Assembly: GCA_011033025.1 (NCBI GenBank)
Contig: WFMF01000016.1
Location: 372,001 to 436,000 of the forward strand
Length of the DNA: 64,000 bases
Reading direction: 5' to 3'
From: Beroe forskalii
Lineage: Eukaryota; Ctenophora; Nuda; Beroida; Beroidae
This document shows positions 9,013 to 64,000 of this stretch, one piece after another (position 1 is the first letter of the stretch; every line of letters begins with the position of its first letter). Both the position numbers and the translations under genes were made by a program. Under the pieces are notes generated by a model. The model was not told where the DNA came from and ran no database searches. It saw nothing but the letters and a program-made list of their open reading frames with translations.

Positions 9013-12000
9013 TTTTTCAAAGTTTTTTGGGCACAGTTATTCACTGATAGATCTCGATGAGCTGATCACGAATATATCGGGTTTTTTGAAATTGGACGGC
9101 GCCTTCCTTGTCCGCAGGGGCTTTTTGTGTTTCGTGACGTCATGTCACGTGTCATGTCACGTGACCCGTCTGCTAGTACTTTGTGCGCTGGTTGCTTCCG
9201 CGCGCGCGATTGTTATACTGTGCGCGTTCGCGGATCTGTCGCAGTCTGATGGCAGAGTAATTGCAGGCATTGCTTAAGCTTATGGTAGTGGTGCTATAGG
9301 TCCAATGTGTCAACTTTTAAAGCTTATAGTCATACTGAAGACGTTCAGAAGAAACGCATGAACTAATCGGGTTTGTTTCTTAGTTCAATACTGTAATAGG
9401 CTGATTCGGCTTAGCGGATTGAGTTGAATTGACTCAAAGATGGCATCATCAAGTATACGAGAGAGCAAAAGAATCAAAATGATTTAATGATCTTAGAAAA
9501 CTCATATTACCAATACCTCAGCGGATCCGCTTAGTTAAGCGGATCCGCTTAGCAGATTCAATCATATTATCCAAGCGGATCCGCTTAGCTTAGCGGATCC
9601 GCTTAAGATGGAGCTGTGTCATGGCAATTTTTCTGAATTTTATAATCGAGATGATTTTCAAAAAACGGTAATGCTATCCGCTGAGCTTAGCGGATCCGCT
9701 TAGCCCTAGCAGATTCAATCACATTATCTAAGCGGATCCGCTAAGCTAAGCGGATCCGCTTAGCTTAGCGGATCCGCTTAGGATGTAACTGTACTGTGTC
9801 ATGGCAAGAAAACGGTAAAGTGACACTTGACCCCCAACATAACATCCCCCGACACCACGCCCCCTACTTCAGTACTGTGAATCTATAGAGGAAAGCAGAG
9901 GGTCAAACGTCGCAGTTTGACGATTGGTGCAACATTTGACTCCCCCGCCCCGACATTACATCCCCCGATCAATAAGCAAGTACTATATCAAACGCACTGA
10001 TCCGCGGCTTAACATCACATCCCCTCTATAGGCATAGTAAACTCCCTTGCATCTGTGCTTGGGAACGGGAAGTTCAGGTGTCGCACCATCGACCTAGTGA
10101 CAAGCAACATGAACCTATCAATAACAAGCGCGGGATTCCGATTAGACACCGATTGTTAACCCGGACTTGTGATAGCAGTCTCGTTCTACTCCATATCCCA
10201 GCATCTCTCCTGACATCCTGGAAAGTGACCTGAATTCCTGAAATTCGAATAATCATTCTGAATTGAATCTGATAATCGAATCCTTGATTTCCGAATAAAT
10301 CGAGTCTTCGATTCGTCGAATCGAATCGAATAATCGAATCGACGAATCGAATCGACGATCGAAATCGACGAATCGAATCGACGAATCGAATCGACGAATC
10401 GAATCGACGAATCGAATCGACGAATCGAATCGACGAATCGACGAATCTCGAATCGACGAATCGAATCGACGAATCGAATCGACGAATCGAATCGACGAAT
10501 CGAATCGACGAATCGAATCGACGAATCGAATCGACGAATCGAATCGACGAATCGAATCGACGAATCGAATCGACGAATCGAATCGACGAATCGAATCGAC
10601 GAATCGAATCGACGAATCGAATCGACGAATCGAATCGACGAATCGAATCGACGAATCGAATCGACGAATCGAATCGACGAATCGAATCGACGAATCGAAT
10701 CGACGAATCGAATCGACGAATCGAATCGACGAATCGAATCGACGAATCGAATCGACGAATCGAATCGACGAATCGAATCGACGAATCGAATCGACGAATC
10801 GAATCGACGAATCGAATCGACGAATCGAATCGACGAATCGAATCGACGAATCGAATCGACGAATCGAATCGACGAATCGAATCGACGAATCGAATCGACG
10901 AATCGAATCGACGAATCGAATCGACGAATCGAATCGACGAACTCGAATCGACGAATCGAATCGACGAATCGAATCGACGAATCGAATCGACGAATCGAAT
11001 CGACGAATCGAATCGACGAATCGAATCGACGAATCGAATCGACGAATCGAATCGACGAATCGAAGACTGACGGAGGAAATCAAGGTTCTGTTGTGTAGTC
11101 AGAATGATTATTCGAGAATTTCCAGGATCAGAGTCGAATTTTCCAGGATGTCAGAGAGATGCTGGATATGGAGTAGAACGAGAATGCTATCACAATCGAA
11201 GGGCTAGGTCCGAATCGACAATCGGTATCGAATCGAATCCCGCTTGTTATTGATAGGGTTCATGTTGCTTGACACTAGGGAGCTAGGGCGATGGTGCGAC
11301 ACCTGAACTCCCGTTCGACGAATCGAATCGACGAATCAAATCGACGAATCGAATCGACGAATCGAAGTCTGACGGAGGAAATCAAGGTTCTGTTGTGTAG
11401 TCAGAATGATAATTCGAGAATTTCTCCGGGTAAACAATCGGTATCTAATCCCGCGCTTGTTATTGATAGGGTTCATGTTGCTTGACACTAGGGAGCTAGG
11501 GCGATGGTGCGACACCTGAACTCCCGTTCCCAAGCACAGTTGCAAGGGAGTTTACTATGCCTATAGAGGGGATGTGATGTTAAGCCGCGGATCAGTGCGT
11601 TTGATATAGTACTTGCTTATTGATCGGGGGATGTAATGTCGGGGCGGGGGAGTCAAATGTTGCACCAATCGTCAAACTGCGACGTTTGACCCTCTGCTTT
11701 CCTCTATAGATTCACAGTACTGAAGTAGGGGGCGTGGTGTCGGGGGATGTTATGTTGGGGGTCAAGTGTCACTTTACCGTTTTCTTGCCATGACACAGTT
11801 ACATCCTAAGCGGATCCGCTAAGCTAAGCGGATCCGCTTAGATAATGTGATTGAATCTGCTAGGGCTAAGCGGATCCGCTAAGCTCAGCGGATAGCTTTA
11901 CCGTTTTTTGAAAATCATCTCGATTATAAAATTCAGAAAAATTGCCATGACACAGTTCCATCTTAAGCGGATCCGCTAAGCTAAGCGGATCCGCTTGGAT

Positions 12001-12520
12001 AATATGATTGAATCTGCTAAGCGGATCCGCTTAACTAAGCGGATCCGCTGAGGTATTGGCAATATAAGTCCTCCAAGATCATTAAATCATTTTGATTCTT
12101 TTGCTCTCTCGTATACTTGATGATGCCATCTTTGAGTCAATTTAACTCAATCCGCTAAGCTGAATCAGCCTATTACAGTATTGAACAAAGAAACAAACCC
12201 GATTAGTTCATGCGTTTCTTCTGAACGTCTTCAGTATGACTATAAGCTTTAAAAGTTGACACATTGGACCTATAGCACCACTACCATAAGCTTAAGCAAT
12301 GTCTGCAATTACTCTGCCATCAGACTGCGACAGATCCGCGAACGCGCACAGTATAACAATCGCGCGCGCGGAAGCAACCAGCGCACAAAGTACTAGCAGA
12401 CGGGTCACGTGACATGACACGTGACATGACGTCACGAAACACAAAAAGCCCCTGCGGACAAGGAAGGCGTTGTCCAATTTCAAAAAACTTGATATATTCG
12501 TGATCAGCTCATCGAGATCT
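9013..12520. mobile_element. Foldback DNA transposon, copy A (Mutator-like, non-autonomous, ends eroded)
   Basis: The left arm (TTTTTCAAAGTTTTTTGGGC, then AGATCTCGATGAGCTGATCA and a CACGTG-rich segment) reappears inverted at the right side, ending at about 12520. Both arms carry several 16-bp palindromes AAGCGGATCCGCTTAG and a shared block with CCCCCGACACCACGCCCCCT. The centre is a 13-bp satellite. Compared with copy B at 44438-47490, the terminal 15 bp on the left and about 58 bp on the right are missing or replaced, so this copy cannot be given a target-site duplication. No transposase. Confidence 0.82.
10304..11065. repeat. 13-bp satellite core of foldback copy A
   Basis: About 58 copies of the 13-bp unit GAATCGAATCGAC. 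Three units make 39 bp, so every frame translates to a 13-residue repeat of the FVDSIRRFDSSIR kind; the 276-codon minus-strand frame over this stretch is an artefact. A short second array with the same right flank (CTGACGGAGGAAATCAAGG) lies at 11315-11365, evidence for a local duplication of the array edge. Confidence 0.95.
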
Positions 12521-15800: not shown

Positions 15801-18800
15801 ACACGGAATTACACAACGACACACTCATCTATTAACCTACAAAAATCTTGTCTCAAAGAGATGCCGAATTTTATCGGTATCATTTTCATCTGTTTTTTGT
15901 CAGAATTGTCTCGTAAATGACCCCATAAATCACTTGTGATTTATGTACGAATAATGTGCTTTTACTCATCGATAGAGCACGTTTCACACTCATGATATTT
16001 CTGACATAAACTCTTTTCGTAGATGCAACATTTCTGCTTGATATGAACCAGAAATGTAACTTTTCTTCAATCACTCAAGTTTCTATAAATTTAAGGTTAC
16101 CGTTCTTCAGGGGAAGCATATCAGGTTTGAATGAAACGTGGTACCTTGTGCCAGAGAACGGTGGGTATGTCATTTTCCCAGAATCAAGCATCCCTGCGAG
16201 TAGTGATCTACAAACACTCGGTATGACAATCATTAATAAATGACAGAGAACAAAACAATTAAAGTCTTTAGTTAAATAAATAGCTAAGTTTTATATTTTA
16301 TAAATAAATTTTATTATTCTCCGAGATTAACGTAACAAAAACTCATGCTCACAAAAATGGATAAGTAAAAATTCCTCATGCGTCATGATATCCTAAACTC
16401 TGATCGTAATACATATTGGTGACTTCTATAAATCACAAAATCATTTTCAGATTTTCTGGAAGATCCATCAAGCAAAAGGCCCAGGAGCTCACTTTACCGA
16501 CGGAAGCGCGATTACGAAGTGAAGCCGGTGCAAAGGCACAAGTTCATCATAGAAGTGGTAGTAGTAACAGACCTGGCCTTGCTCAGCCAGTTTAACAACA
16601 ACGTGACGGCTATGGAAGAGTTCGCGCTGAGCACCATGGCCCAAGTGGACTACATCTACCAGAAAGTGGGCATGAGAGTTGCCCTGATTGGCATGGAGAT
16701 CTGGAGACAGGAGGATAGGATGAATGTGTCAACGGAGGCAGGGGAGTCTCTCAGAGACTTCAAATACTACAGACGGAACACACTCCTGGAAGAGTTCAAG
16801 CAACATGACTCCAGCACCCTAATGACGTAGGTGTTCAACGATAATGTTTGCAGTTTTCTGTATGCAGGTTAATAATGAGACCATTAAAATTGTCATAACA
16901 TCGTACGATTGTCTTTTGAAGTCTCATTTGGTTGGCAGTTGGCACTAAAACTCGAGGAGTTGGTAACGCGGCGGAAGTCTGCGATTTAACAACGGACTAG
17001 AGTGAAATTCACATTTGTTTACATTGCACTTAGCTGTGTGGCAGAAAGTGCTGCAGGCGTTTTTCCACCAATTTACTGATAAAACCATTTGTGAGCGTCC
17101 AATTGATACCAAAGTCCAATATTAGCATGCATACAGTTTATGGGAATCTAAAACTAAAAAGCGTTTGTGAAAATGTGAAGCAATTCCATCATAAAAGGCC
17201 TGGATAATTGCAAATGTAATTACGGACCGAAATTAATTTTTGGCCCGAAACTGCCAGTCTTGGTCCGAATCTGACTTAATTCTGCTGCATATTCGTCATT
17301 TTTAAAATGAAAATGGTTCGATTTTCCCAGGCGATAACTGATAACCTGTATCCATGAAATCTTGAGTATCGAATGGTTTTGTCAGTGAATTAGTCGCAAA
17401 ATGTGCGGAGCATTTTCAATCCAAAACTGATTTATGCTGTTCACAATTAAATTGGCCTTTACAACAAAACTAATTCAAACCTGCATGTCTTTCATAATAT
17501 AAGTTCATAGTAGTTGCCGTATTGGAAAGTAATACGGTAAATAATAAAGGCTCGCCCTTCGGGCTCCATTTTATTTCTCACCGTATTATTACCCTGATTA
17601 TCCGGCTAATGAATATATTCATTATTCCCTGTTTTAGAACCTTATGCTGAAGCTCAATCATCACCATAGATTTATACGTACCTACCCTAGGAATTTCCTG
17701 GGAATAGTATTTCCTTACAACAAAAAACTCTTGAGAAAACATGCCTTGAGTAACGTATTCTTACACGCGATTCTAGTGACGATAATACTCAATGCAAATG
17801 TTTCACACCTCTTCCATGGGAACATTTTACTTCAAATAGCCGATTTCAATCACACTAAGGGGATAAGATTTCTCAGGAATCTGCGGATGCAAACCTGGGG
17901 CACACCCTGAACATACCTGGGGCACACCTTGGGCACGTGACAGGAGGAAAGAATTCCCAAACTGCTTTCTAGATATTAAATTTCACAGCACCACTGCTTT
18001 CAAGGGAGTAGATTTCACAGCACCACTGCTTTCAGGGGAGTAGATTTCACAGCACCACTGCTTTCAGGAGAGTAGATTTCACAGCACCACTGCTTTCGGG
18101 GGAGTAAATTTCACAGCACCACTGTTTTCAGGGGAGTAGATTTCACAGCACCACTGCTTTCAGGGGAGTAGATTTCACAGCAACACAGCTTTCAGGGGAG
18201 TAGATTTCACAGCACCACTACTTTCAGGGGAGTAGATTTCACAGCACCACTGCTTTCAGGGGAGTAGATTTCACAGCACCACTGCTTTCAGGAGAGTAGA
18301 TTTCACAGCACCACTGCTTTCAGGGGAGTAGATTTCACAGCACTACTGCTTTCAGGAGAGTAGATTTCACAGCAACACTGTTTTCAGGGGAGTAGATTTC
18401 ACAGCAACACTGCTTTCAGGGGAGTAGATTTCACAGCACCACTTCATTCTGGGGAGTAGATTTCACAGCACCACTGTTTTCAGGAGAGTAGATTTCACAG
18501 CACCACTGTTTTCAGGAGAGTAGATTTCACAGCACTACTGCTTTCTGGGGAGTAGATTTCACAGCACCACTGTTTTCAGGAGAGTAGATTTCACAGCAGC
18601 ACTGCTTTCAGGGGAGTAGATTTCACAGCAGCACTGCTTTCAGGGGAGTAGATTTCACAGCACTACTGCTTTCAGGAGAGTAGATTTCACAGCAGCACTG
18701 CTTTCAGGGGAGTAGATTTCACAGCACCCCTGCTTTCAGGAGAGTAGATTTCACAGCACCCCTGCTTTCAGGGGAGTAGATTTCACAGCACCACTTCATT

Positions 18801-21800
18801 CTGGGGAGTAGATTTCACAGCACCACTGTTTTCAGGAGAGTAGATTTCACAGCAGCACTGCTTTCAGGGGAGTATATTTCACAACACCACTTCATTCTGG
18901 GGAGTAGATTTCACAGCACCACTGTTTTCAGGAGAGTAGATTTCATAGCAACACTGCTTTCAGGAGAGTATATTTCACAACACCACTGCTTTCAGGGGAG
19001 TAGATTTCACAACACCACTGCTTTCTGGGGAGTAGATTTCACAGCACCACTTCTTTTCAGGGGGAGTAGATTTCACAGCACCACTGTTTTCAGGAGAGTA
19101 GATTTCACAGCAGCACTGCTTTCAGGGGAGTAGATTTCACAACACCACTGCTTTCAGGGGAGTATATTTCACAACAACACTGCTTTCGGGGGAGTAAATT
19201 TCACAGCATTAATGCTTTCAGAGGGAGTAGATTTCACAGCATTAATGCTTTCAGGGGAGTAGATTTCACAGCATTAATGCTTTCAGGGGAGTAGATTTCA
19301 CAGCATTAATGCTTTCAGGGGAGTAGATTTCACAACACCACTGTTTTCAGGAGAGTAGATTTCACAGCAACACTGCTTTCAGGGGAGTAGATTTCACAGC
19401 ACCACTGCTTTCAGGGGAGTAGATTTCACAGCACCACTGCTTTCAGAGGGAGTAGATTTCACAGCATTAATGCTTTCTGGGGAGTAGATTTCACAGCACC
19501 ACTGCTTTCAGGAGAGTAGATTTCACAACACCACTGTTTTCAGGAGAGTAGATTTCACAGCAACACTGCTTTCAGGAGAGTAGATTTCACAGCACCACTG
19601 CTTTCAGGGGAGTAGATTTCACAGCACCACTGCTTTCAGAGGGAGTAGATTTCACAGCATTAATGCTTTCAGGGGAGTAGATTTCACAGCATTAATGCTT
19701 TCAGGGGAGTAGATTTCACAGCATTAATGCTTTCAGGGGAGTAGATTTCACAGCACCACTGCTTTCAGGGGAGTAGATTTCACAGCTCCACTGCATTCAG
19801 GGGAGTAGATTTCACAGCACCACTGCTTTCAGGGGAGTAGATTTCACAGCACCACTGCTTTCAGGGGAGTAGATTTCACAGCATTAATGCTTTCAGGGGA
19901 GTAGATTTCACAGCATTAATGCTTTCAGGGGAGTAGATTTCACAGCACCACTGCTTTCAGGGGAGTAGATTTCACAGCTCCACTGCATTCTGGGGAGTAG
20001 ATTTCACAGCACCACTGCATTCTGGGGAGTAAATTTCACAGCATTAATGCTTTCAGGGGAGTAGATTTCACAGCACCACTGCTTTCAGGGGAGTAGATTT
20101 CACAGCACCACTGCTTTCAGGGGAGTAGATTTCACAGCACCCCTGCTTTCAGGGGAGTAGATTTCACAGCACCACTGTTTTCAGGGGAGTAGATTTCACA
20201 ACACCACTGCTTTCAGGGGAGTAGATTTCACAGCACCACTGCTTTCAGGGGAGTAGATTTCACAGCACTACTGCTTTCAGGGGGAGTAGATTTCACAACA
20301 CCACTGCTTTCAGGGGAGTAGATTTCACAGCACCACTGCTTTCAGGGGAGTAGATTTCACAGCAACACTGCTTTCAGGAGAGTAGATTTCACAGCACCAC
20401 TTCACTCTGGGGAGTAGATTTCACAACACCACTGCTTTCAGGGGAGTAGATTTCACAGCACCACTGTTTTCAGGGGAGTAGATTTCACAGCACCACTGTT
20501 TTCAGGGGAGTAGATTTCACCGCACCACTGTTTTCAGGGGAGTAGATTTCACAGCACCACTGCTTTCAGGGGAGTAGATTTCACAGCAACACTGCTTTCG
20601 GCGGAGTAGATTTCACAGCACCACTGCTTTCAGGGGAGTAGATTTCACAGCACCACTGCTTTCAGGGGAGTAGATTTCACAGCAACACTGCTTTCGGGGG
20701 AGTAAATTTCACAGCATTAATGCTTTCAGGGGAGTAGATTTCTATGGACCCACTGTTGGAATGGCCCTGGTGGGCACTATTTGCCAGAGCAGCTGCTGTA
20801 ACGTTAACAGCAACACCAGGAACAGCTCCAAGTTCCTTGCGTCAGTCATTGCTCACGAGTTGGGACACAACCTTGGACTGCGCCACGACACAGGTTAGTA
20901 AGATGCAGGCGTATTACTGGTAATTGGCATGGTAAGATCTGAGTTTATCAAGTGTAAAACGTCCTAAATGACTCAACTTCCTTCACGATATTCTCAGGTA
21001 TATTTCCAACAGACTCACTTCACCAGACTTTCAGTGACGGATGACGATGACGACTGCAAGTGTCCACCGGACCACACCACCTGTATCATGGGAGGTTCTA
21101 TAGGAGGCGTCGTACCCAAGCTGTTCAGCGACTGTAGTAAGGAGTTCCTTAACTCCACTGAGTTTGTAGAGGAGGACTCCTACTGTTTGTGGGACGTGCC
21201 GGAGTCACTGTACGGGGACCCGGTGTGTGGCAATGGCTTTGTGGAGGAGGGGGAGGAGTGCGACTGTGGTTCTGAGGAGGTAGGAGGGTGGCTGTTTTGT
21301 CTGATAAGGTGTACTTTCATCCGTTCTGAACATTGAGTTAGGAGTTTTCAGTTGACGACTTCAAACTCTCTGATACTGCATTCAACTTTTACCACTTACT
21401 ATTGTTTCGTCACCGATTGTTGCGTCAAACAACTTACAGGGTGCGCCAAAAGTCTTGTCCCCTTTTACTTTTTTGATTATTCGAAAAATACAGCAGATAT
21501 TTCGATTTTGTAAAAAGTTTCGTTAAATACAACCAAAGAATGGCAGATTCTGAGATTTTTGGGTTGCTATGACTTTCATAGCAACCACACGAGTCTCCAT
21601 AGCAACCAGGCTCAAAATGGAAGAATCTGGGCGTCTTTAAGAAAACAAACTCACTAACGGCCATTTATTTCAATTCTATTGATGATGGAAATGGAAGTAA
21701 ACAATACAAAATCATCAAATAAAGTGAATCTAGCTCAAAAGGGATTCAGTGCATGTTCGAAGTAATCTCCTTGGGTAGAATTTGGGGCTAATTTTAGTGA

Positions 21801-22689: not shown

Positions 22690-25440
22690 ATCTTGAAGCT
22701 TTCAAGGGAATTCAGTTGTGAGGACGGCTGGTAAAGTATTCCAAAGCTGAGCGGCTTTTACACCAAATGAACTGTCATAGTCACTACGAACAGATAGCTG
22801 GGCTTTTGGTGTTGATCTTTGGGATAGTTGCCTTGACCCCAAGCCGAGGATGGTCCTTGAACTGCATTTGTACATCGTTTGGGGCATGTCTGTTGATCAT
22901 CTTCCATACTTGGATGATGCAGTATCTCTCTCGCCGGCGCTGAAGTGACATCAATTTGAGCTTCTTAAGTCGGTCCCAATAGCTCATGTCTGATAATCCA
23001 GATATTTTACGGACAAAGCATCGCTGAACATTTTCGAGCTTCTGAATGTCTGATATCTTAACAGGATTCCAAACAGGGCAACAGTATTCGAGTCTGGAAC
23101 GAACCATAGACTTATATAGAGTGAGCATGACAACAGGAGATCGATCAGCGAAGGCACTGAGAACCCAGGATGCCATTTTACGGGCACCTTGTGTAATTTG
23201 TTCGATATGGGGTGACCATGATCTATCACTTGAAACAAGGACTCCCAGATCCCTGACCGTCTCTTTCAGTTCTATAACGTCCTTTTGGCGTTTTGTACTG
23301 GAAATTCTCCAAATAGAATGGGAGCTGCCTTAAATAGTAAGAACTATTATGGATAGTTTAGGAGCTGAAACTTGTCTTCATGAAGCTCCATGTTGTTGAT
23401 GGTTGACCAATCAATAACACTACAAAGGTCTTCTTGTATGCGAGTGGTGCTTTCTATCCCAACGACTTGAGATATAAGCTTGGTGTCGTCAGCAAAGCAC
23501 AGTCCTTTACAGTTTTTAAGAGTAGGAATAAGGTCATTTATGTAAAGGAGGAACAGTATAGGCCCCAAAACTGTACCTTGTGGCACGCCACTGATCACCC
23601 GTTGGGCCGATGACAGAGCCCCTTCCACCTGAACAGTCTGAGTGCGGTTAGTGAGGAACTGTTCGATCCAGGACAATACCTTTCCCCCGATGCCATAACG
23701 CTTCAGTTTCTCGAGCAAGACTTGGTGGTCGACTTTATCAAAAGCCTTGAGTAGTCCAGGTATATGACATCTACTTCATCATTGCTATTGAGACAGCTGT
23801 AGATGAATTCTATGACTAAGCAGCTGGGTCAGGCAACTGCGCTTTTCCTGAACCCATGCTGGTTGTTGCTTATCAAATTTGCCTCTTCAAGATAGGTAAC
23901 AAGCTTATCTCTGATTATTCGTTCGAAAGTTTTGATAACGTGTGATGTAAGGGAGACAGGCCGATAATTCGCGGGGTCAGTGCGATCACCTTTCTTGTAG
24001 ACTGGTGTTATAAATTGAGACTTGAGCTCAGAAGGGATGACTCCATTGGCAAGGGAATGTGACCAGTATGTGTAACGGGGCAGATAGTTCGTCTCTGCAG
24101 GAGCTAAGGATTCTTGCAGGAATGTCGTCGTCTGGGCATGCCGAATAAGGGTCAAGTTCTTTGAGGGCAGAGATTATGTCTTCTTTTGAGAAGCTAAAGT
24201 CAAGGAAGGAACTACTCATCCCTTGAGGAAGCCCATTTGATTGTAGGCATTCATTGATGTTGGCTTTGGCAGGGTCACTGAAAACTTTCTGATATTGAGA
24301 TTGAAGAATTTCTGCTTTGGTTTTCGGATCACTTATGAGTTCGTTTGGGGATTTACGAAGCACTGGGATTGTAGATTTGGTCTTTTGGAACCGTTTGGCA
24401 TAAGAGAAGAAGTATTTCGGGTTACTTCTGATGGTTTGGACGGCTTTCTCCTCTCTACGGGTTAAATTTTTCAATATTTCTTTCTGGATGTCATAGACAA
24501 GGAGGTTAACTTCTTTGGTTAGATTGGGGAGTAAACGTGACATAGGGTTCCTTTCCTGTAGAGCACGTATTCTGGAATTGAGCTTTCTCCTTTTTCTCTT
24601 CATGCCTGTAACAACACTGGTTTGTCTGCGCTGTGTATGAGAGTTACTTAATGCTTTGTTTGATGGGGAACAAAGTAGAGTGATTTGTAGTACAGTGAGC
24701 TTCATCAGTTCAAGGTATTGCTCAGGATTACAGTCACAAATTATCCACAGATCTTCCCATTCCACATCTTTGAATGCTTCTTTCATAGCACCAAAGTCAG
24801 CGTTATGGTAGTCTGCTGCTCGAAAGGAGTGAGGGTCCCGGCTCTCGGTCGGGGAATCCTGGGTCAAACCAAGCATGTCATAGCCAAGTAGGGCTTGAAC
24901 CAGAGAGTGGTCAGACAGGATGGTAGGCTTTACTCTGACTTCTGCTACGTAACGTGGCGCGTTAGTAAAAGCAAGGTCAAGTGTGTTATCACCTCTGGTA
25001 GGCTCGGTAACAATTTGAGAAAGTTGGTTTCTATCCATGAAATCGAAAAGATCGGCCACAGAGTCTGAATTATAGGATAGTGGCATCTTCCAGTCTATTT
25101 CGGGGAAGTTGAAGTCCCCAAGGACATATAGATCTGGCATTCTGTGCTTGTCTGAGAGACGGTCAATTAAATCTTGGAGGTGACAAAGCATTGCAGAAAA
25201 GGCTGTCGGATTTGCATCTGGGGGCCTATATATTGCAGCAATAACAGTATGGCTTGCTTCGAGATAACAACATACCATATTGTTCTGTTGGTCTTTATAC
25301 TGAGAAACCTCTTTGACGAGTAGCTGATCATGGAGGTAAAGAAGACAACCTCCACCAACTTGAAGCACACAACTTCCTTCAACCCTCACACCTACAAGGG
25401 ATGACTTGCTCCATTGTGGGTTAAGTGAGCAAACACTCAC
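22690..25440 (-). mobile_element. CR1/jockey-type non-LTR retrotransposon, 5'-truncated and frameshifted
   Basis: On the minus strand the long frame 25440-24028 holds an exonuclease-endonuclease-phosphatase domain (AAIYRPPDAN, VLGDFNFPEIDW, LSDHSLV) followed by a linker and the start of the reverse transcriptase (YSACPDDDIPARIL). The frame shifts near 24100, near 23800 and between 23350 and 23176. Further pieces hold VYKKGDRTDPANYRPVSLTS, SGVPQGTVLGPILFLLYIND, the catalytic FADDTKL, and the C-terminal LEYCCPVWNP and LWNTLPAVL segments typical of CR1/jockey elements. The N-terminus of the endonuclease is missing. It lies directly downstream of the last visible ADAM exon, in the opposite orientation. 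Confidence 0.92.
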
Positions 25441-26141
25441 TCTTACACTTGTAAAACCGCATTACTTTTGCAGTTTGTAATCTCACATATCCCAATCGTA
25501 CCTTAAACTCCCCTCCCCCTCAGATTTTACTCATAATCTTATTATCTGAACCCAAGCCTTTAATTTACTAATTTACACATAACTTTCGATGCTAGCACAC
25601 GTACCTACATGCAGTTATTTTCTTCAATATTTTAATGATTGATTTTATGTGTACGCCAATGTTCATTGTTGAGCAAATTCAATTACTGAATAAAACCGGT
25701 GTGTAAGAAAATACGTGTCATATTTCAAACTAAGTCAGTAAACACTAAACAGTACACTCGCATATCAATATCATGTAAGTAGTGAAAGTATTGGCAGGAA
25801 AAACTTGATATCGTAATTTGAATTCCTAGGTGAAGCTAGATACGAAGAAACTCTCTTAGTAACGTGCAGTTATTAAGATAATTATTCCATTTCTCCAAAA
25901 ATTGATAGACAGGTACTTTTTACCATAATGAAGGCCAAATCATGATTTGATAACAGTTCCGCATTTGGTGGTGCATTTCATCGTCCTTGATTAGATTCGG
26001 CATATGGAGAAAGTCTTGCACTCTTTATAACACAATGTTATATTTGAAAGACCAAGTCGAATTTAGGCCCGAGTTTACCAGGTCCCTATAAGACCACAAA
26101 ACTGCTAATTCTGTATGTTTTACGCGACGTGGGACAAAAAG
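25441..26141. other. Non-coding AT-rich spacer
   Basis: No open frame with family features, no splice-flanked coding exon and no tandem structure seen on either strand. Confidence 0.45.
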
Positions 26142-44437: not shown

Positions 44438-47400
44438 TAGGGTGCGCCCTTTTTTCAAAGTTTTTTGGGCACAATTCTTCACTGGTAGATCTCGATGAGC
44501 TGATCACGAATATATCAAGTTTTTTGAAATTGGACAACGCCTTCCTTGTCCGCAGGGGCTTTTTGTGTTTCGTGACGTCATGTCACGTGTCATGTCACGT
44601 GACCCGTCTGCTAGTACTTTGTGCGCTGGTTGCTTCCGCGCGCGCGATTGTTATACTGTGCGCGTTCGCGGATCTGTCAGTCTGATGGCAGAGTAATTGC
44701 AGGCATTGCTTAAGCTTATGTTATAGTGGTGCTATAGGTCCAATGTGTCAATTTTTAAGCTTATAGTAATTCTGAAGACGTTCAGAAGAAACGCATGAAC
44801 TAATCGGGTTTGTTTCTTTGTTCAATACTGTAATAGGCTGATTCAGCTTAACAAATTGAGTTAAATTGACTCAAAGATGGCATCATCAAGTATGCAAGAG
44901 AGCAAAAGAATAAAAAAGAATCAAAATCATATTAGCTCAGCGGATCCGCTTAATTACCTAAGCAGATCCTTTTAGCTAAGTTATCCCGCGCTTAGCTAAG
45001 CGGATCCGCTTAGCAGATTCAATCATATTATCTAAGCGGATCCGCTTAGCTTAGCGGATCCGCTTAGGATGGAACTGTGTCATGGCAATTTTTCTGAATT
45101 TTATAATCGAAATTATTTTCAAAAAAACGGTAAGCTCTCCGCTGAGCTTAGCGGATCCGCTTAGCACTAGCAGATTCAATAATATTATTTCTAAGTATCT
45201 AAGCGGATCCGCTAAGCTTAGAGTAAGCGGATCCGCTTAGGATGTAACTGTGTCATGGCAAGAAAACGGTAAAGTGACACTTGACCCCCAACATAACATC
45301 CCCCGACACCACGCCCCCTACTTCAGTATTGTGAATCTATAGAGGAAAGCAGGGGGTCAAACGTCGCAGTTTGACGATTGGTGCAACATTTGACACCCCC
45401 GCCCCGACATAACATCCCCCGATCAATAAGCAACAATATCAAACGCACTTATCCGCGGCTTAACATCACATCCCCTCAATAGGCATAGTAAACTCCCTTG
45501 CAACTGTGCTTGGGAACGGGAGTTCAGGTGTCGCACCATCGCCCTAGCTCCCTAGTGTCAAGCAACATGAACCCTATCAATAACAAGCGCGGGATTAGAT
45601 ACCGATTGTTAACCCGGACCTAGCCCTTACTTGTGATATCAGTCTCGTTCTGCTCCATATCCCAGCATCTCTCCTGACATCCTGGAAAGTGCACGACTCT
45701 GGTCCTGGAAATTCTCGAATAATCATTCTGACTACACAACAGAGCCTTGATTTCCTCCGTCAGTCTTCGATTCGTCGATTCGATTCGTCGATTCGTCGAT
45801 TCGATTCGTCGATTTGATTCTTCGATTCGATTCGTCGATTCGATTCGTCGATTTGATTCATCGATTCGATTCGTCGATTCGATTCGTCGATTCGATTCGT
45901 CGATTCGATTCGTCGATACGATTCGTCGATACGATTCGTCGATTCGATTCGTCGATTCGATTCGTCGATTCGATTCGTCGATTCGATTCATCGATTCGAT
46001 TCGTCGATTCGATTCGTCGATTCGATTCGTCGATTCGATTCGTCGATTCGATTCGTCGATTCGATTCGTCGATTCGATTCGTCGATTCGATTCGTCGATT
46101 CGATTCGTCGATTCGATTCGTCGATTCGATTCGTCGATTCGATTCGTCGAGTCGATTCGTCGATTCGATTCGTCGATTCGATTCGTCGATTCGATTCGTC
46201 GATTCGATTCGTCGATTCGATTCGTCGATTCGATTCTACTTTCCAGGATGTCAGGAGAGATGCTGGGATATGGAGTAGACCGAGACTGCTATCACAAGTA
46301 AGGGCTATGTCTGGGTTAATAATCGGTGTCTGCGCTTGTTATTGATAGGGTTCATGTTGCTTGTCATTAGGTCGATGGTGCGACACCTGAACTCCCGTTT
46401 CAAGCACAGTTGCAAGGGAGTTTACTATGCCTATAGAGGGGATGTGATGTAAAGCCGCGGATCAGTGCGTTTGATATAGTACTTGCTTATTGATCGGGGG
46501 ATGTAATGTCGGGGCGGGGGAGTCAAATGTAGCACCAATCGTCAAACTGCGACGTTTGACCCCCTGCTTTCCTCCATAGCTCTATAGATTCACAGTACTG
46601 AAGTAGGGGGCGTGGTGTCGGGGGATGTTATGTTGGGGGTCAAGTGTCACTTTACCGTTTTCTTGCCATGACACAGTACAGTTACATCCTAAGCGGATCC
46701 GCTAAGCTAAGCGGATCCGCTTAGATAATGTGATTGAATCTGCTAGTGCTAAGCGGATCCGCTAAGCTCAGCGGATAGCTTTACCGTTTTTTGAAAATCA
46801 TCTCGATTATAAAATTCATAAAAATGGCCATTACACAGTTCCACCTTAAGCGGATCCGCTAAGCTAAGCGGATCCGCTTAGATAATATGATTAATGATTG
46901 AATCTGCTAGTGCTAAGCGGATCCGCTTAGCTAAGCGCGGGATAACTTAGCTTTGCGGATCTGCTTAACTAAGCGGATCCGCTGAGGTAATATGAGTTTT
47001 CTAAGATCATTAAATCATATTGATTCTTTTGCTCTCTCGTATACTTGATGATGCCATCTTTGAGTCAATTTAACTCAATCCGCTAAGCTGAATCAGCCTA
47101 TTACAGTATTGAACAAAGAAACAAACCCGATTAGTTCATGCGTTTCTTCTGAACGTCTTCAGTATTACTATAAGCTTTAAAAGTTGACACATTGGACCTA
47201 TAGCACCACTAAGCTTAAGCAATGCCTGCAATTACTCTGCCATCAGACTGACAGATCCGCGAACGCGCACAGTATAACAATCGCGCGCGCGGAAGCAACC
47301 AGCGCACAAAGTACTAGCAGACGGGTCACGTGACATGACACGTGACATGACGTCACGAAACACAAAAAGTCCATGCGGGCAAGGAAGGCGTTGTCCAATT

Positions 47401-47490: not shown

Positions 47491-49156
47491 CTGAAACTTG
47501 CTCTTTGGTCTTTGTTTGTACTCCAAGCACCAAGAAATTAAGCAGCACACTAAGTGAAGGAGTGCAGCCCAATCAATCCTACTTTTACTCAGAATAAAAC
47601 AAAAGTTTCAGAATAAAACAAAAGTTTATTTCGCATTTCTTTATACACACCTAAATACTGAATATATACAAAATATGATAAAAATTCTGGTTTCAGGGTA
47701 ATATTGAAATCAATATAATATTAGAATATTCTAATAGGGGGATTCTGGTTTCAGGGTGATAGGGAAACTCTAACATTAGAGCATACAGATGATAGGGTTC
47801 TGATATCAGGGTGTAGGGGAATTGTATAACATTGGGACATTCTAACAAAGTGATCAGGAGTAAAATTTCTTTGATTTTGACTTAGCCCACGCCTTTAGAT
47901 GACCTCCTACCCAGTGAGGGTAGGCTTACAAGTGCTGGCGAAACGCAAGGTCGCAAGGCTGGAGGCTTATTGCTTCCTTTAAGTGTACCAGCACTTGAAG
48001 CTAGGATAGTCTTTGTTTCTAGTATATATCATTATAAGAATATTTTATTGTGTTTGTATAATGTAGGCGAAGTCAATTTTCTTAAAATGGATGAGTTTCA
48101 AACTTTTTCAACATTAAACTTAATGTTAAACTCATTAAGTTACATAATATCAACTTATTAAATAAACAACATTATGTCAACAAATGTAAAACATTTTATG
48201 GTGTGTTCTCAAATTTTAAAAGCAACAGGTTGAAAAGTAGCTCAAATGGGTTCAACAAATACCCCTCATGGCTTGTAAATTCTATATAGTTTCAATTTTC
48301 AACTTTAAATTGCATTGCCTAAAGCGATCATGTTAGTGTTCAAGTATGCAGTTGGAGAAAAGTCTTGCAGATTGATTTCTTGAAAAATTTCTTTGTGATT
48401 AAAATATATAATTTTTAAGAGAGATATGGAGATAGTTCCTGTAGAGAAAACTGTTCAAACTAGGGCTATGGGAAATGCTTGGTCTTTTTTACCTGCCCTT
48501 TCTGACCTGTTGCTTTTGACCTATGAAGACACATGTATAAAACATCTATCTTTAAGATAAACAATTCAGAAATGGAGCTGGAAGTTAATAAAGATAAACT
48601 TGATGGGCTTAAGTATTAGATTCATATCTGTACAGTATAAACTCAAGTCAATTGCATATGTATGCAGACCGCTCAATTGACAGAGGCCTCGATAAGGCAT
48701 GCCTCTGCATGCTTCAACTTTCAAAATAAATTCTGTCAAAAGCACACAATTTCACGTGTCTTTATCAAGGCCTTTTTTAATAGAGGTCTGCACACATATG
48801 GGAATCAATTTAAAAGAGGAGAATAGGACTGTGTTAAGTGTAAATCATCTCATTCAGGATGAAAAATTCTGGAAATGGGCCTTACCTACACCGAAGATCT
48901 AGTGAAAGGTAATTGAATTATGAATCAATTCATTTTGATTAAAAGATAGCTAGGTGTGCCTACTGTGTTATTACAGCTGTTTTACTATAATTATATTATA
49001 TGTCTTCCAATCTTCCTTCAAATATTCTTAAATTGACTGGTTATCCTCGATTAATCTGAATAAAATAAGAACAATTATTTTAAGTAATTCAGTCCTCTAC
49101 AGATTTCTAAACTATAAGAATTAATGTATTTAAATCATAATAATAGATAATCTTAG
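47491..49156. other. Spacer upstream of the lipase exons
   Basis: AT-rich. A dispersed repeat copy lies at 48310-48410 (AGTTGGAGAAAAGTCTTGCA), matching 43295-43410. The first coding exon of the lipase gene, with its ATG, should lie here or in a longer 5' intron, but I could not identify it. Confidence 0.4.
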
Positions 49157-52100
49157 ATTGAGATATGCTGTTGATGTTGCTCAAAAGTCAGTGAATGATG
49201 CTTTCAAGATATTTTCTCTGGGAAAGAGACCTTATCATCAGTTATTCAGTGATGTTTGTCAGGTATTATTAAGTTTACATGTAGACACTATTGAATCAAT
49301 TTCATTTTTGGGTTATACCTGTTTTCTTGCTGCTTACTTATTCAGTGATAACTGTACCTAATTTCAACATATGAAAACTAATTATCAGAATTCAACAAAT
49401 TGTCTTATTAAAATTAAACTACATCTATGCAGTATACATAAGTGTATATTGAATCAATCAAACAATAGTCTTAGTCAAAAATATATTTCAGGATATCAAT
49501 GCTCAGTTGGATACACTGAACCTTCTCATTAAACCATTGATTGAAGCAGCACCTCTCTATGATTTTGAGGTAAAATAACTGGGTAGCAAATTTATACCTA
49601 CTATTCATGAAGTCTCTATTCTAGTCATTTCAAGGGTAAATTAGGGAAACTATTGATCAGCATCGAAATCAAAATGAAAATCTATTTCAATAACATTGTA
49701 GGAACTTCCATATGAAACATTTACTCAATACTTATTTCGAACATTGTTCTCTAACTGATATATCAGTTTCTTAACTCAATCACATGCTTGTAAGAACCCA
49801 TGTATAAGATTTATGTTGAGAATCTTCTTTCTGATTATTTGTTAGTTTGTTACACATATGCTACCAGGAAGTTGAAGCTAATGGCATCAGGAGCATGTTG
49901 GGAGTGGTGGATAGTGTGTTAAAGGAGCTCATATCCCATGTCCGTTACTGCACTGAAAAGCACACTTCTTTCTTCTTCAATGGGTTTCTCTTTGAACTTC
50001 CTGTTTTTGCAAACCATGATTTGGGGTTTGAGTATTTTTTCATGGAACATATGATCATGATATTTAACTCCTTGCTGAAAGAAAAGAACGTAAGACTTAA
50101 GGGTGGGTGGCCATTTTCGAAAGTATGGAATAGTAGGTACAATCGGCGCTTTTTGAATACGAAAGTGGGAAGGGTGTTTTTTAGCGAATTCCATGAGGTA
50201 CCATGGTACTTTTTTGATCGTCGGTTAGTGAAAAGAATGGGTGCTTTGGCCAAAATTTCGAAAATTGATCATATGCTTCATGAAAAACTACTTAAACCCC
50301 TCTAATGAATTATTAATGATAAGTTTATGGGTGCATGAGAAAAATACATGTTGATTCATGCTCACTGCTTACCTAATCAATACTTTGAGGCAGAACTACT
50401 AACTGTACTCTTTTATGTACTCTTTTATGGAATTATTCTTTCCAAACATTTAGAATCGGCCCTTATTTAACCGGCATTGAATATGGATCAAATTAATGAA
50501 AGGTACAATTTTGACCGAGAATGTTGGTAAGAAAAGGCCCGATAAGGTATTTACCTTTATAAATTTGATCTTGAGCATCGTTGAATTACCCAGAACAAAT
50601 GCTGCTGCGAAGCTGGCTCGTTTCTGTCTGCTGCTCTCACGTCTGGGAAAGATGTTGGACATCACGACTGCTATGCACCAGCAACTAGGGTAAGTTAATT
50701 GATAAAGTCTGCCTATTTTTGGAATTCACTCAAACGTAAGATATTATCATGCATTTTGGATAATGTATTAATTAAATCAAAAAGTGTTATATTTTTCAAA
50801 GTTTAATTTATTTACTACGAACCTGGAAATTCTTACTTTTGAAGTTTGAACTATTTTAAAGAAGTGAAACGCTAGGTGAGAACATCCGAGGGGTTTGTCA
50901 CCCTCTGTACAACATTAGATATATTGACTCTGTTACATGTCCTCTGAATAATACAAATCGTTAATAACAGAATATTACAAGCTGCCAAAATTACACTTAA
51001 ATAAACTAATGTGAAAAAATTATAACTAAAACTCTGTATCCAATAAGACGTGACATGACAGAGAAGATATCAAACACACAATCACTAAACAAACAATGTT
51101 TGCTCTCGACAACCTACATGCTAACGAATACGTATACAGAAAGTGTATCATGTACACCAAATACCAAGAAACTAGATACCAGACACTAATTAAGTACAAT
51201 ATTTCCTACATGAATTCTGATACATTGAAGTTATGCCAGTACTTTGACAAGCATCCTGGACGGCTTTTCAGGAAATTATTGAGTGTGCCGTACAGTCTGT
51301 TCTGTTCAAAGTTCTGGTTTAATAACTTAGTAACTAGTAGCCTAACGTCCACAATAAAATCGCGATGGTCTGATGATGATTTACAGATTCGGTAGAGTTC
51401 ACCAACAAAAGTACCATAAGAGTTTCTATTGGGGACATTAGATTCAGATTGGGAAAAGTAACTACTTTAAATGGAAAATCTCTTCGCTTATCATACAGTT
51501 TGCATAAAAATCTGTTATTCTCTATTCGAATATCCAAATCTAAGAAAGAAGTGTTGAATTTGCTATCATTAGTTGCTACGATACTTAGCTCCTCTGGATA
51601 TATCTCTTTGGTAATGATGTCACAAAGTTTCCTACTAGCATTGGGGACATTCAAGTCATCAATATACCTTCGGGCATATTTAAGAGTGTGGGTAACAGGG
51701 TTCTTGTCAGCAATAGCCTTGAGTATGTAACTGTGCTCATACCAGTAAAGAAAAGATCTGCTACTTGCGGAGCACAGTCACAACCCATAGGTATGCCAAC
51801 AATCTGCCTGTAAATCACACCCCTAAACTTCACATAGATATTGTTTATCAAAAGGAAAAACATTTCCAGTACCTCCTGGCAGGTGTATGTCCACTGAGTT
51901 TTCTTAACTCCTGTCCAGTAAGCACCGAATTTGTCATCAATTTTGATATAATCAACTTTCTTAATCATATAACAACGTTTGATAAGATCTGAAATCTTAT
52001 CAATAACCTTATCATGGGGAATATTAGTATACAGTTTCTTGAAATCAAAAGAGTCCACTGATTTAGCAGAACTCGCATTATTCAGATAGTTAAGATTATA

Positions 52101-55100: not shown

Positions 55101-58100
55101 GCAGAATGCTGCTCAATAACACTTCTGACTTCCAAAGATCAGCCCTTTTAATCCAAGAAATTGTAATATCATAATATGACATTACAATTTCTTGAATTTC
55201 CTTGCATTTAGTTATTATCTAAATTTGATAAGAAAAATGTCCGTCATCGATATTGTATAAACTTTATTCGGCCACTGCCTATTGTTATGATTTACAGCAA
55301 TAGATGTATATATGCGCGGCCCTCAAATAAGTGAGAAGATTTTTTAATTTTTTATATAAAACCTGTTACCAGTAGTCACAATATCACTACTTCGACCTTA
55401 GCGTTTCCCCTTCATTGCTCACACTTTTTAGTTTGCAGCACCGCACTAGTTTTCCCTTCTATAGTATAGGATAATCAAACACCCTTAGGATACGTTTATA
55501 TGAATTATCACACGAGCGAAGCGAGTGTGATAATTCGAATTATTGCTCGAGCCGAAGGCGAGTGCAATAATTCGAATTATCACTCGAGCCGAAGGCGAGT
55601 GTGATAATTGATATAAACGTATCCTTAGGGTGTTTGATTAATCTATTATATAACGTGAGAAACGGGCGGATATTTACACTAGTTTTCCAATAAGAAAGCG
55701 AATTTAGAAGCCTTTAAATATAAAAATCCTTTGAACTAGAAGGCCTGAAATTGAATCTTGAAAATATCAAGCTTTGAATTGGCCGGTAATTTTAGATTAG
55801 ATGGTGAAGAGTGGCTATGTATATTTGAATTTGCCTAAGAAAGTATGAATAAAAACGCAAGTCCGGAATATTCATAAACTTTGGTCGTATCTTTTGATTC
55901 AACAAGGTACTATAAAGTGATTGTCAATTGAAATGTACAACAACAAAATAGAAAGGACATTTTCGTGTAAGTGTGCAACGCCGTAACGGACGCAAATGTA
56001 TCGGCAAATTGCGGGCGGTGGCATTTGTTTAAAATGTATAAAGATGTAAGAAGGGAAACATGATTCAAACAAGCGAAATTTCACCAACGTGTACAACAAG
56101 TATACAAAAAACCAAAACAAGAAACCTTAACGCCAAAGCAAGAGAATAAATTTGTATATGCTCGTGTATCGTTATTTATACAAGTAAGCAAGTAGTGAGG
56201 GTAAGTGGTCCTTGTGGCACGTGCGTGCGCGGCTCATATAACGACAACTGAGTATACATAAACTCATTAAATCAAAACAAGATAACATGATAATGTATAC
56301 ACTGATGTATTGTAATGGAGAGAGAGCAAGTGGTCTAAAGGGTTTACTGGCACGTGCGTGCGCGGCTCATATAACGACTAAAGTGGACACATGAAACGAA
56401 AACAAGATAACGTAATATGTATACACCGGTTTATCGCAAGGGAGTGAGGGCATTAACTTAAACTCTAAAAAGTTAGATTTAAATGATCTTACATAGTAGA
56501 TAAATACTAATCACAAAATTCAAAAGTTTTGATTTTTGGGGTGTGATAATTTTTCAAAGATGTGATAACTGTTCTTTGAGGGGTGTGATAACTGTACAGT
56601 TATCACACACCTGGAAAAATTATCACACCCCAAAATTTCGAAAATTTTAAAATCTTATGAAAACTATTAATTGACCCCTAAACTCCATTTTTGAAGCCGT
56701 TATATAACAAAAATTATCGAAGCAAGAATTATATAACGATCGTTATATAATAACAGTGCACTACCTTGTGTTCCAGGGGCAAGGAGCTGTTCGTTGAAGT
56801 AAACAACCCAGTGGGAGCGTTCTGCATGAAGGAGTTCGAGGGTCTGTCTCGGGAGTGTTTCTACGGTCAGCTGGTGGGGATTCACTACATTCCTCAGATC
56901 AGGAACCTTATGAAGGTCAGTCCGATGCTTCCCATTCGCAGATGTTAGAATGTGAGTAGCACGCGCATTATGAAGGTAGGGTCCAATGCTTCCCATTACC
57001 AGATGTTAGAGTGTGAGTAGCACGCGCATCAGGAACCTTATGAAGGTAGGTCCATGCTTCCCATTACCAGATGTTAGAGTGTGAGTAGCACGGGCATCAG
57101 GAACCTTATGAAGGTAGGGTCAATGCTTCCCATTACCAGATGTTAGAGTGTGAGTAGCACGGGCATCAGGAACCTTATGAAGGTAGGGTCAATGCTTCCC
57201 ATTACCAGATGTTAGAGTGTGAGTAGCACGCGCATCAGGAACCTTATGAAGGTAGGGTCAATGCTTCCCATTACCAGATGTTAGAGTGTGAGTAGCACGC
57301 GCATCAGGAACCTTATGAAGGTAGGGTCCAATGCTTCCCATTACCAGTTGTAAGAATGCAAGTAGCACGCGCATCAGGAACCTTATGAAGGTAGGGTCCA
57401 ATGCTTCCCATTACCAGATGTTAGAGTGTGAGTAGCACGCGCATCAGGAACCTTATGAAGGTAGGGTCCAATGCTTCCCATTACCAGGTGTTAGAGTGTG
57501 AGTAGCACGCGCATTATGAAGGTCAGTCCAATTCTTCTTTTTCCTAGATGTTAGAATGTTAGTAGCACGCGCATCAGGAACCTTATGAAGGTCAGTTCAA
57601 TGCTTCCCATTACCAGGTGTTTAAGTGTGAGTAGCACGGGCATCAGGAACCTTATAGCTTTATAGGCGGTTCAGTTTCATAAACTTTCTAAATAGTGATA
57701 TGATAACTACTAACTAAGTCGTCTTAGCCGCCTATTTCTCGTGTGGGCATGTATCATGGTGTGATAGGTATAGAAGCTCTGTTGTAGTGAATGGTGTATT
57801 AGGTTTACAAAAGCCATTTACAGTAGTTATTCAATATCCATCTTACTAACGGTAGGTGACTGTGACTGTGATATAAACTTACATTATTTCATGCAATCAA
57901 ATTTCTTTTGGATGGGAAACATGGATCCTTTTTCCTATCTATAAATTCAGAAAACATCATACAACAATTCACCCTGTTATTGATAACGGTCTATTGTTCC
58001 CTACATAAGTTCTGAATGTGCGAAGTGTACCAGTACACTAAGCAAAGTAAGTAGCTGATGCACATCATGTGTACCTACTGTGTGTTCTCAAGTACATTAA

Positions 58101-62148: not shown

Positions 62149-64000
62149 GTGAGGAGGAGTTTCAAAAGGGGTTAGGAGGAGTTTTAAAAGGGTTTGGTAG
62201 GGGTTCACGGGGGTTGGGGGTTTTCAAGGGAGAGGGTAATGGTTTTTACGGGCTCTGGGAGTTTAAAGCGGGTATTGGGGATTCATGGGGATAAGAGAAC
62301 CAGCCTCGGGTTGAATTAATTGTCTGCGCCAAAACACTACATGCAAGCATTTTACATAAAATTTACTAACTCATATGGAACGATATATCATTCGCAGCAC
62401 TTCTGTACTGTGCTTTAGAGACTAGAATTACCAATGCATAGCAAAATGATCCAATTGTTTTCTAGGTGTGCTTGGGCACTGGGAACAATAGTAAAGTAAT
62501 AAAATTGTAAAATATACATATTTTGAACTCTGTACAGTATACATTGAAATTTGTACGATAGTACGATATACATTTCCTACCAGGAAGCTGTGCGTTGTTC
62601 AGCATCATTGTCAACTCACCAGACTGCACAGGTGTGAAGTGTGCTCACACAATGAAACAGGTGTTAGGAGCCATTGTATACAGAATGTACACTATACACA
62701 ATGTACAGAGTGTCGGAGTGTTAGCTTCATGCTCATCACATAATGCCACTCATTAGCCTGGTAAAGTTTACGAGTGTGTGATTTTACGAGGTCCATGCCA
62801 GTACACACTTTTTCGAGCTAGTGGGGGCCGAGGCCCCCCTAGATTTTTCAAGTGGGCCCTTCTCAAAACTAAGGGGGGCTGCCCCCCCTAGGAGGGGCGT
62901 GTAGTCCCATGACAAGGCCTTGATTAGACGAATATACCTATCCAAGCTTTCATTGATGGCCCATGTCGTAAACCAGCCTGTACGTTATTCAGGAACATCA
63001 CCAAATTTAAGATGTAATGAAGAGATTTATCTTGTAACATCAAATACAGTGGGGTATGTTTTAGTACGGGTTTAAACTTTAGTTTTAGTTGAATAAATAG
63101 GTTTCTCTTAGATATATTTTCAACTAATTCTAAGTGCATCATGACTGGCAGTTAAAAGCTCCTTTGGACCACGTACAGACTATTTGCTTATTCGAAAATT
63201 AATAAAACAAATAATTTAATAAAACAAATAATTTACATTTTGTAGCACATTACACCATGATTCAAACACAAATTCCTTTGATCATATAACAATTGTGATT
63301 TTAAGTAGTTGGATACTTGGTTGATGAGAGACATAGCATTTAATTAGCAATTAATAAAGTAATAATTTAAAATTAAAAAAAGGGAGACAGACAGCCCATT
63401 ATCATAATAACAAATTAAAAGATACGGGGACCCTGCCATGCTGGTCCAAAATAAACAACTGCTTATAATAAAAAAAAAAGAACTAGTAAGGTATAATTTG
63501 ATATTATAAACAGGTTTCATAACCTGCCATTGTAAACAGGAAACGTAGCAAGTAGTTGGTATAATGATTAAATTTTCTAAAAAGAGAGTTGTGTTGTGGG
63601 CTACAGGAAATACTTGTGGAAAACTTGGGTATCACCTTTGGTACAACAACTATATTAACATTTAAAACAGTTTTCCCAGGAAAAATTTACCAACTTGCTA
63701 CCACAAAAACTATTAAAAACAATAAGCTAGTAGTGAAATACACCTCAAACTCTATTATGGTAAATATCATTTAACTGAAAGCTAAAATTAAACTGATTAA
63801 TTAAAGTTGACATGACCATTAAAAACACAATTCAGTTCATGTTCTGTTATTAACCTGTGTTCACCTAAGTTGAGTATAAGTCCTTCCATATATATACAAA
63901 TACAGGTAATTATAACATGCAGCAATATTCAACTGTTGATCTGAAATACATGAAAATATGCAAATTGATAATCATAGTAGTCCTTTAGTGAGAACTGCTG
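62149..64000. other. Right-hand intronic DNA, with a weak reverse-transcriptase trace
   Basis: No further lipase exon is seen. On the minus strand 63142-62880 a stretch reading NNVQAGLRHGPSMKAW followed by IRLIKALSW resembles a worn reverse-transcriptase A region. A GGGGGCCGAGGCCCCCC palindrome lies at about 62823-62840, near a G/C-run block to 62895. The remainder is AT-rich and featureless. Confidence 0.35.

What the first reader, a model, noticed from the sequence alone, without database searches (positions are those of the whole stretch)
17970..20760. A 2.7-kb minisatellite built from the 3' splice site of the ADAM active-site exon
The 32-bp unit contains CTGCTTTCAG followed by the first 13 coding bases of exon 8. 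The last unit is the real splice junction, without spacer. The intron therefore holds about 85 consecutive decoy acceptors that look like the real one up to base 13 of the exon. Using an upstream acceptor would add repeat sequence, including stop codons, ahead of the zinc site. How the true junction is chosen, or whether the array tunes the amount of active enzyme, is open. Copying of the exon bases shows the array grew leftward from the junction.
Basis: partly seen in the sequence, partly recalled or inferred. Interest (0 to 1): 0.9.

Follow-up and report, generated by a model that had tools for sequence, protein, structure and literature searches.

The report
Splice-junction repeat array in comb jelly
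In a comb-jelly gene for an ADAM protease, the short stretch of DNA where an intron must be cut out has been copied in tandem 86 times, so dozens of good-looking but ruinous cutting points lie just before the true one; such arrays are known from lancelets, and several more turned up nearby here.

Summary
The array is real: 86 tandem units of about 32 bp (window 17980-20742), each 19 intron bases plus the first 13 bases of the exon encoding the HELGH zinc site; the last unit is the true 3' splice junction (20729|20730). A nine-exon ADAM model stays in frame through it. A paralog has the same intron, 285 nt, without an array, so the exon bases are ancestral and the array derived. 71 of 85 decoy acceptors keep CAG; all 71 would give a premature stop; 49 of 71 score at least as well as the true site, so local strength cannot mark the junction. 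No growth gradient was found. The animal is a ctenophore: COX1 is 99% identical to Beroe forskalii. The kind is known: 'mirages', splice-junction minisatellites of amphioxus, reported not to disturb splicing; my searches found none from ctenophores. Five further junctions with such arrays lie in the 264 kb examined, three of them resting on open frames alone. Best reading: a chance junction duplication that grew, tolerated because only the last acceptor adjoins the exon. Whether array length tunes enzyme output is untested; no transcript was available.

The parts
16451..16826 (+). ADAM exon 6 of my model, ending ATGAC|GTAGGT (phase 2 donor)
   Evidence: Reprolysin 2.2e-17 on 16468-16827; frame
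16827..20729 (+). intron of 3,903 nt that holds the array
   Evidence: in-frame join 16826|20730; same intron position and phase in the paralog
17980..20742 (+). minisatellite, 32-bp unit, 86 units counted from 17985
17980..17984 (+). ATTTC just left of the first unit, the same five bases as exon +9..+13; possible primer of the founding duplication
20679..20710 (+). nearest decoy unit, acceptor lost (TTTCGG in place of TTTCAG)
20711..20742 (+). junction unit: 19 intron bases and the first 13 bases of the exon
20730..20893 (+). ADAM active-site exon (GVDFYGPTVGMA...HELGHNLGLRHD), 164 nt
   Evidence: Reprolysin 3.9e-10, resuming at profile position 96
56777..56915 (+). exon of a hormone-sensitive-lipase-like gene whose donor end seeds a second array
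   Evidence: HSL_N E 4.2e-4, below the family cut-off
56968..57655 (+). second junction array in the window, donor type, 69 bp x 10.1
   Evidence: 10 decoy donors, 8 of 10 with 18 exact exon-end bases, 2 of 10 with 8

Best explanation
This is a splice-junction minisatellite of the kind called 'mirage', in a ctenophore. SHOWN: its 32-bp unit is intron -19..-1 plus exon +1..+13 of the ADAM active-site exon; the 86th unit is the junction itself; a paralog has the same junction without the array. INFERRED: a chance tandem duplication across the junction, perhaps primed by the ATTTC found both left of the array and at exon +9..+13, founded it, and slippage or unequal exchange with local homogenisation expanded it. 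INFERRED: splicing stays correct because only the last acceptor adjoins the exon body and its downstream donor (exon definition), while each unit is an equal branch-point-to-acceptor module, so that no upstream module is favoured; any leak is lost, because every intact decoy leads to a premature stop. The array needs no function of its own.
For: Array and register. In-frame join and continuous Reprolysin match across it. Paralog with the same intron, phase and 11 of 13 bases, no tandem repeat in the 3,165 bases scanned. 71 of 71 intact decoys give a stop, 60 of 71 at codon 13. 49 of 71 decoys score at least as high as the true acceptor, so local strength does not decide. Neighbouring units more alike than shuffled ones, 5 of 2000 shuffles as low. 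Five further junctions with arrays of both donor and acceptor type in 264 kb. Published mirages behave so in amphioxus (passages).
Against: No transcript of this gene was seen: the best database relative is 58% identical over 43% of the query, so correct splicing is assumed. The acceptor matrix rests on only 18 sites from my own gene models, at least two of them uncertain. Exon-derived columns vary less than intron-derived ones (3 of 13 against 15 of 19, Fisher p 0.003; five units of 33-34 bp were left out), which simple neutrality does not predict; but columns share history, and the exon block ranks only seventh of 32 circular blocks. In the BflGb6 mirage the cluster boundary stays out of homogenisation; here the junction unit does not.
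Confidence: 0.72

Rival explanations
1. Splicing rheostat: the decoys compete with the true acceptor, a length-dependent share of transcripts takes a decoy, gains a stop and is lost, so array length sets the amount of active protease.
For: 71 decoys keep CAG, 49 of 71 score at least as well as the true site, and 71 of 71 would give a stop. In human ABCA7 an intronic VNTR with a donor in its unit correlates in length with exon 19 skipping and lower expression (passages of PMC5954066).
Against: In ABCA7 retention of a VNTR unit did not change with length. Amphioxus mirages are reported not to disturb splicing. The nearest decoy is dead. Nothing here measures splicing.
Confidence: 0.12
2. The length is inflated or the array made by mis-assembly.
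For: Tandem arrays are hard to assemble; a neighbouring region is present twice at 84-93% identity and may be two haplotypes laid side by side.
Against: 38 distinct unit sequences in a patchy order and no long repeated block of units (longest repeated run of unit types: 3); contig of 1.1 Mb; further junction arrays in other genes.
Confidence: 0.06
3. The reverse origin: an intronic satellite came first and the exon's first bases were recruited from it.
For: Array edge and exon start coincide, and the exon's first 13 bases equal the unit.
Against: The paralog has the same intron position and phase and 11 of the 13 bases without an array. Of seven database ADAMs aligned, three keep GVDF or GIDF at this place and five read TG before it. 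The unit query matches nowhere else in the assembly (38 of 38 listed matches here, a lower bound).
Confidence: 0.02

Closest known systems
Amphioxus 'mirages' (Adh3; globins BflGb6 and BflGb9; troponin C; PGBD5)
   Same: Minisatellite-like tandem duplication of an intron-exon boundary, at either end of an intron, with splice signals in many units, beside the real junction; reported not to disturb splicing (passages of PMC3087553, and PMC3902484).
   Different: Cephalochordates, not a ctenophore. BflGb6 has 3 and 6 units of 150-160 bp and Adh3 units of 10-72 bp; here 86 units of 32 bp. In BflGb6 the cluster boundaries stay out of homogenisation; here 9 internal units equal the junction unit.
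Human IFI6 (6-16, G1P3) minisatellite
   Same: A minisatellite at a splice junction whose repeat units serve as splice sites (a citing passage and the reference list of PMC4526556; the 1995 paper itself is not held).
   Different: Donor side, and two further units are reported as used in transcripts; here the acceptor side, and use is unknown.
Human ABCA7 intron 18 VNTR
   Same: Intronic array whose 25-bp unit contains a splice donor; retention of one unit gives a frameshift; array length correlates with exon 19 skipping (passages of PMC5954066).
   Different: Donor side; the passages I saw do not say that the unit copies exon bases.

Membership tests
Mirage (splice-junction minisatellite) | Tandem units that contain the end of an intron and the start of the adjoining exon | tested here: met
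   19 intron + 13 exon bases in the unit; exon verified by frame, Pfam and paralog
Mirage (splice-junction minisatellite) | Many units keep a splice signal | tested here: met
   CAG kept in 71 of 85 decoys
Mirage (splice-junction minisatellite) | The array ends in the authentic junction | tested here: met
   last unit 20711-20742 runs into the exon
Mirage (splice-junction minisatellite) | Regular splicing is not disturbed | not testable with these tools
   no transcript data; best relative 58% over 43%
Mirage (splice-junction minisatellite) | Length instability | tested here: inconclusive
   no second allele of the ADAM array seen; the lipase donor array has 10 copies in one copy of the region and 4 in the other
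Mirage (splice-junction minisatellite) | Described in cephalochordates only (as far as I saw) | tested here: not met
   COX1 99% identical to Beroe forskalii, a ctenophore; host range is not a defining property of the structure
ADAM (M12B reprolysin-disintegrin) | Metalloprotease with HExxHxxGxxHD followed by a disintegrin domain (motif recalled) | tested here: met
   Reprolysin and Disintegrin over cut-off; HELGHNLGLRHD

The most novel reading that the evidence does not exclude
The array is a length-encoded splicing rheostat: 71 decoys, most as good as the true acceptor, divert a copy-number-dependent share of transcripts to stop-bearing forms, so unstable array length sets the level of active ADAM protease between individuals or cells; with junction arrays recurring in this genome, splice-junction minisatellites would be a general source of heritable variation in expression in a ctenophore.
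Probability: 0.1. Interest if true: 0.8.

Novelty: new member of a known kind. Interest (0 to 1): 0.5.

Why it matters
It is an extreme natural test of how a splice junction is chosen: 71 acceptors with CAG, 49 of them at least as strong by a small local matrix, precede the true one, so what marks the true site must lie outside the 32-bp unit. It also carries mirages, which I saw in print only from lancelets, to a distant animal phylum, with six junctions affected in 264 kb. That fits a by-product of abundant minisatellites rather than a lancelet oddity, and would be a steady raw material for new introns and splice forms.

Tried and rejected
Growth gradient from the junction: none found. Degenerate units left of the array: two weak matches (17856-17876, E 1.5; 17961-17983, E 3.9), not counted; a looser local alignment scored the left flank at 18, reached by 8 of 500 random sequences, and a stretch near 17841 at 23. 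Coding-type selection on the exon-derived bases of the decoys: not supported; the exon-derived columns that vary in the 81 units of 32 bp are +1, +2 and +8, the last two amino-acid-changing in the exon's frame (reading). Exonised satellite: rejected. Special targeting of junctions: undecided; 52 arrays of period 25 or more in 264 kb would by random placement give 1.8, 3.5 or 7.1 junction-spanning units at 0.5, 1 or 2 boundaries per kb, densities that I assumed, against seven arrays at six junctions that I recognised. A protein search with a 180-aa piece found nothing, as candidates are limited by length. ARAGORN and Rfam on the first 10 kb of the mitochondrial contig gave nothing. Further arrays flagged by the script were not followed up, except those; L029 5761-5951 and L015 4753-5036, shown there, I could not call junction arrays.

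Full report
WHAT IS THERE. Tandem Repeats Finder reports one array at 17980-20742, period 32, 86.2 copies. Cut in register with the splice junction it is 86 units from 17985 to 20742: 81 of 32 bp, four of 33, one of 34, of 38 distinct sequences. The consensus unit is ACAGCACCACTGCTTTCAG|GGGAGTAGATTTC: 19 bases of intron end, then 13 bases of exon start. The last unit, ACAGCATTAATGCTTTCAG|GGGAGTAGATTTC, runs without spacer into TATGGACCC, the body of the exon. In the 216-Mb assembly a 96-base unit query gave 38 matches, all in this array (the tool warns that such counts are lower bounds).

THE JUNCTION. Exon 16451-16826 ends ATG AC|GTAGGT, and the next starts CAG|G GGA GTA GAT TTC, giving ...HDSSTLMTGVDFYGPTVGMA. 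Pfam Reprolysin covers profile positions 3-93 in the first exon and resumes at 96 at the second residue translated from 20731. A nine-exon model, from a signal-like peptide to the disintegrin domain, stays in frame throughout, 472 aa; the active-site exon is its seventh, 20730-20893.

THE EXON BASES ARE OLD, THE ARRAY IS NEW. The exon has two matches in the assembly: itself and a paralog on contig C791, 60% identical. The paralog has the same intron in the same phase, ATGAC|GTAAGT...TTTCAG|TGGTGTAGATTTCGATGG, 285 nt long, and no tandem repeat in the 3,165 bases around its exon. I aligned seven database ADAMs, taken from the 120 listed of 453 found. Three of seven keep GVDF or GIDF at this place (P0127, P0123, P0190); five of seven read TG before it (P0127, P0123, P0147, P0150, P0161); P0141 has neither. 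The nearest, P0127, reads LMTGVDF. So the residues at the junction are those of the ADAM family, and the exon did not arise from the array.

THE DECOYS. CAG is kept in 71 of 85 decoys and lost in 14 (67 of 86 units, the true one included, have AG exactly at the canonical column). Joined to the upstream exon, 71 of 71 give a stop, 60 of them 13 codons past the junction; the true acceptor alone stays open to the end of the exon. By a matrix made from 18 acceptors of my own gene models, the array not included, the true site scores 12.5 bits and the decoys 13.2 on average; 49 of 71 equal or beat it. Such a matrix is rough, and at least two of the 18 sites are uncertain. The true unit holds a branch-point-like TTCAC with its A at -19 (the consensus yUnAy is recalled), and the same bases stand in most units. 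So neither acceptor nor branch point sets the true junction apart. What does is position: only it adjoins the exon body and its donor. The nearest decoy, 32 bases upstream, has lost its AG; with 14 of 85 lost, that may be chance.

HOW IT GREW. ATTTC stands just left of the first unit and again at exon +9..+13, which would be 32 bases apart in a one-unit ancestor: a possible primer of the founding duplication. Neighbouring units are more alike than shuffled ones (2.59 against 2.95 differences; 5 of 2000 shuffles as low), as slippage or local exchange would leave. There is no gradient away from the junction (Spearman 0.10, p 0.37), and nine internal units equal the junction unit, so the junction unit takes part in exchange. 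Among the 81 units of 32 bp (five longer ones left out), 15 of 19 intron-derived columns vary against 3 of 13 exon-derived ones (Fisher p 0.003). Columns share history, and the exon block ranks only seventh of 32 circular blocks, so I draw no conclusion, but it is not what plain neutrality would give.

WHOSE GENOME. COX1 on contig C1134 has four in-frame TGA in the matched part, reads through as Trp, and is 99% identical over 507 aa to a UniRef entry of Beroe forskalii (lineage Ctenophora, Nuda). I take the animal to be that species or a very near one.

NOT ALONE. In the window and 200 kb around it (264 kb) I recognised further junction arrays, partly by eye: (2) window 56968-57655, donor type, 69 bp, 10 decoy donors, 8 of 10 with 18 exact exon-end bases, in a lipase-like gene (HSL_N, E 4.2e-4, below its cut-off); the homologous exon in L019 carries 4 copies; (3) L020 2483-2969, donor type, 147 bp x 3.3, exon with Abhydrolase_3 (E 1.1e-11); (4) L020 5300-5437, acceptor type, 46 bp x 3.0; (5) L015 879-1055, minus strand, donor type, 60 bp x 3.0; (6) L012 2654-2825, acceptor type, 38 bp x 4.5. 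The exons of 4, 5 and 6 rest on open frames and splice signals; Pfam gave no match for 4 and 6 and one meaningless match (E 0.17) for 5. The lipase region is present twice, its aligned pieces 84-93% identical, as paralogs or as two haplotypes; either way the donor array differs in length (10 and 4 copies) while two exons checked encode identical protein. Random placement of the 52 arrays of period 25 or more would give about 2 to 7 junction-spanning ones at assumed boundary densities of 0.5 to 2 per kb; seven arrays at six junctions are seen. A preference for junctions is thus neither shown nor excluded. The ADAM array is the longest of 90 arrays of period 12 or more in those 264 kb, the next being 44 copies of 52 bp in L028.

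WHAT IS KNOWN. [quoted passage not shown] In human, an IFI6 minisatellite supplies donors (a citing passage only), and an ABCA7 VNTR with a donor in its unit correlates in length with exon 19 skipping, while retention of one unit did not change with length (passages of PMC5954066). I saw no report from ctenophores in the listings, nor in the Beroe ovata genome paper, in whose main text the words tandem, minisatellite, intron and splice were not found. The library holds open-licence papers only.

VERDICT. The object is a member of a known kind, in a phylum from which I saw none reported, and at an unusual length. How 71 competitors are ignored, and whether length matters, is for an experiment.

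Noticed in passing
window 56968-57655 and L019 7304-7578: Donor-side junction array (69 bp) in a hormone-sensitive-lipase-like gene, 10 copies in one copy of the region and 4 in the other.
   Followed up: partly
L020 2483-2969; L020 5300-5437; L015 879-1055; L012 2654-2825: Four further arrays whose units span an apparent exon boundary, two donor and two acceptor type; three of the four exons rest on open frame and splice signals only.
   Followed up: partly
window 48300-63200 against L019 2287 to L020 1163: Region present twice on the contig, aligned pieces 84-93% identical: tandem duplication or two haplotypes laid side by side.
   Followed up: partly
window 20715-20729: Use of the CACAG acceptor at -15 in the junction unit would add 15 nt in frame (INAFR after the Thr) without a stop; read by eye from the sequence, not run.
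   Followed up: no
window 9139-12430 and 44577-47351: Two segments bounded by GTCATGTCACGT and CACGTGACATGA with inner 13-bp TCGAATCGACGAA-type arrays and 18-bp palindromic repeats: probably copies of one mobile element; similar arrays recur in L017 and L024.
   Followed up: no
window 22784-25461, minus strand: Open frames resembling a non-LTR retrotransposon (endonuclease and reverse-transcriptase-like, judged by eye), downstream of the last ADAM exon of my model.
   Followed up: no
L033 (contig C1134, 1-10000): Mitochondrial contig of 13.3 kb with TGA as Trp; no tRNA or Rfam match in its first 10 kb (bacterial-code ARAGORN, Rfam gathering threshold).
   Followed up: no
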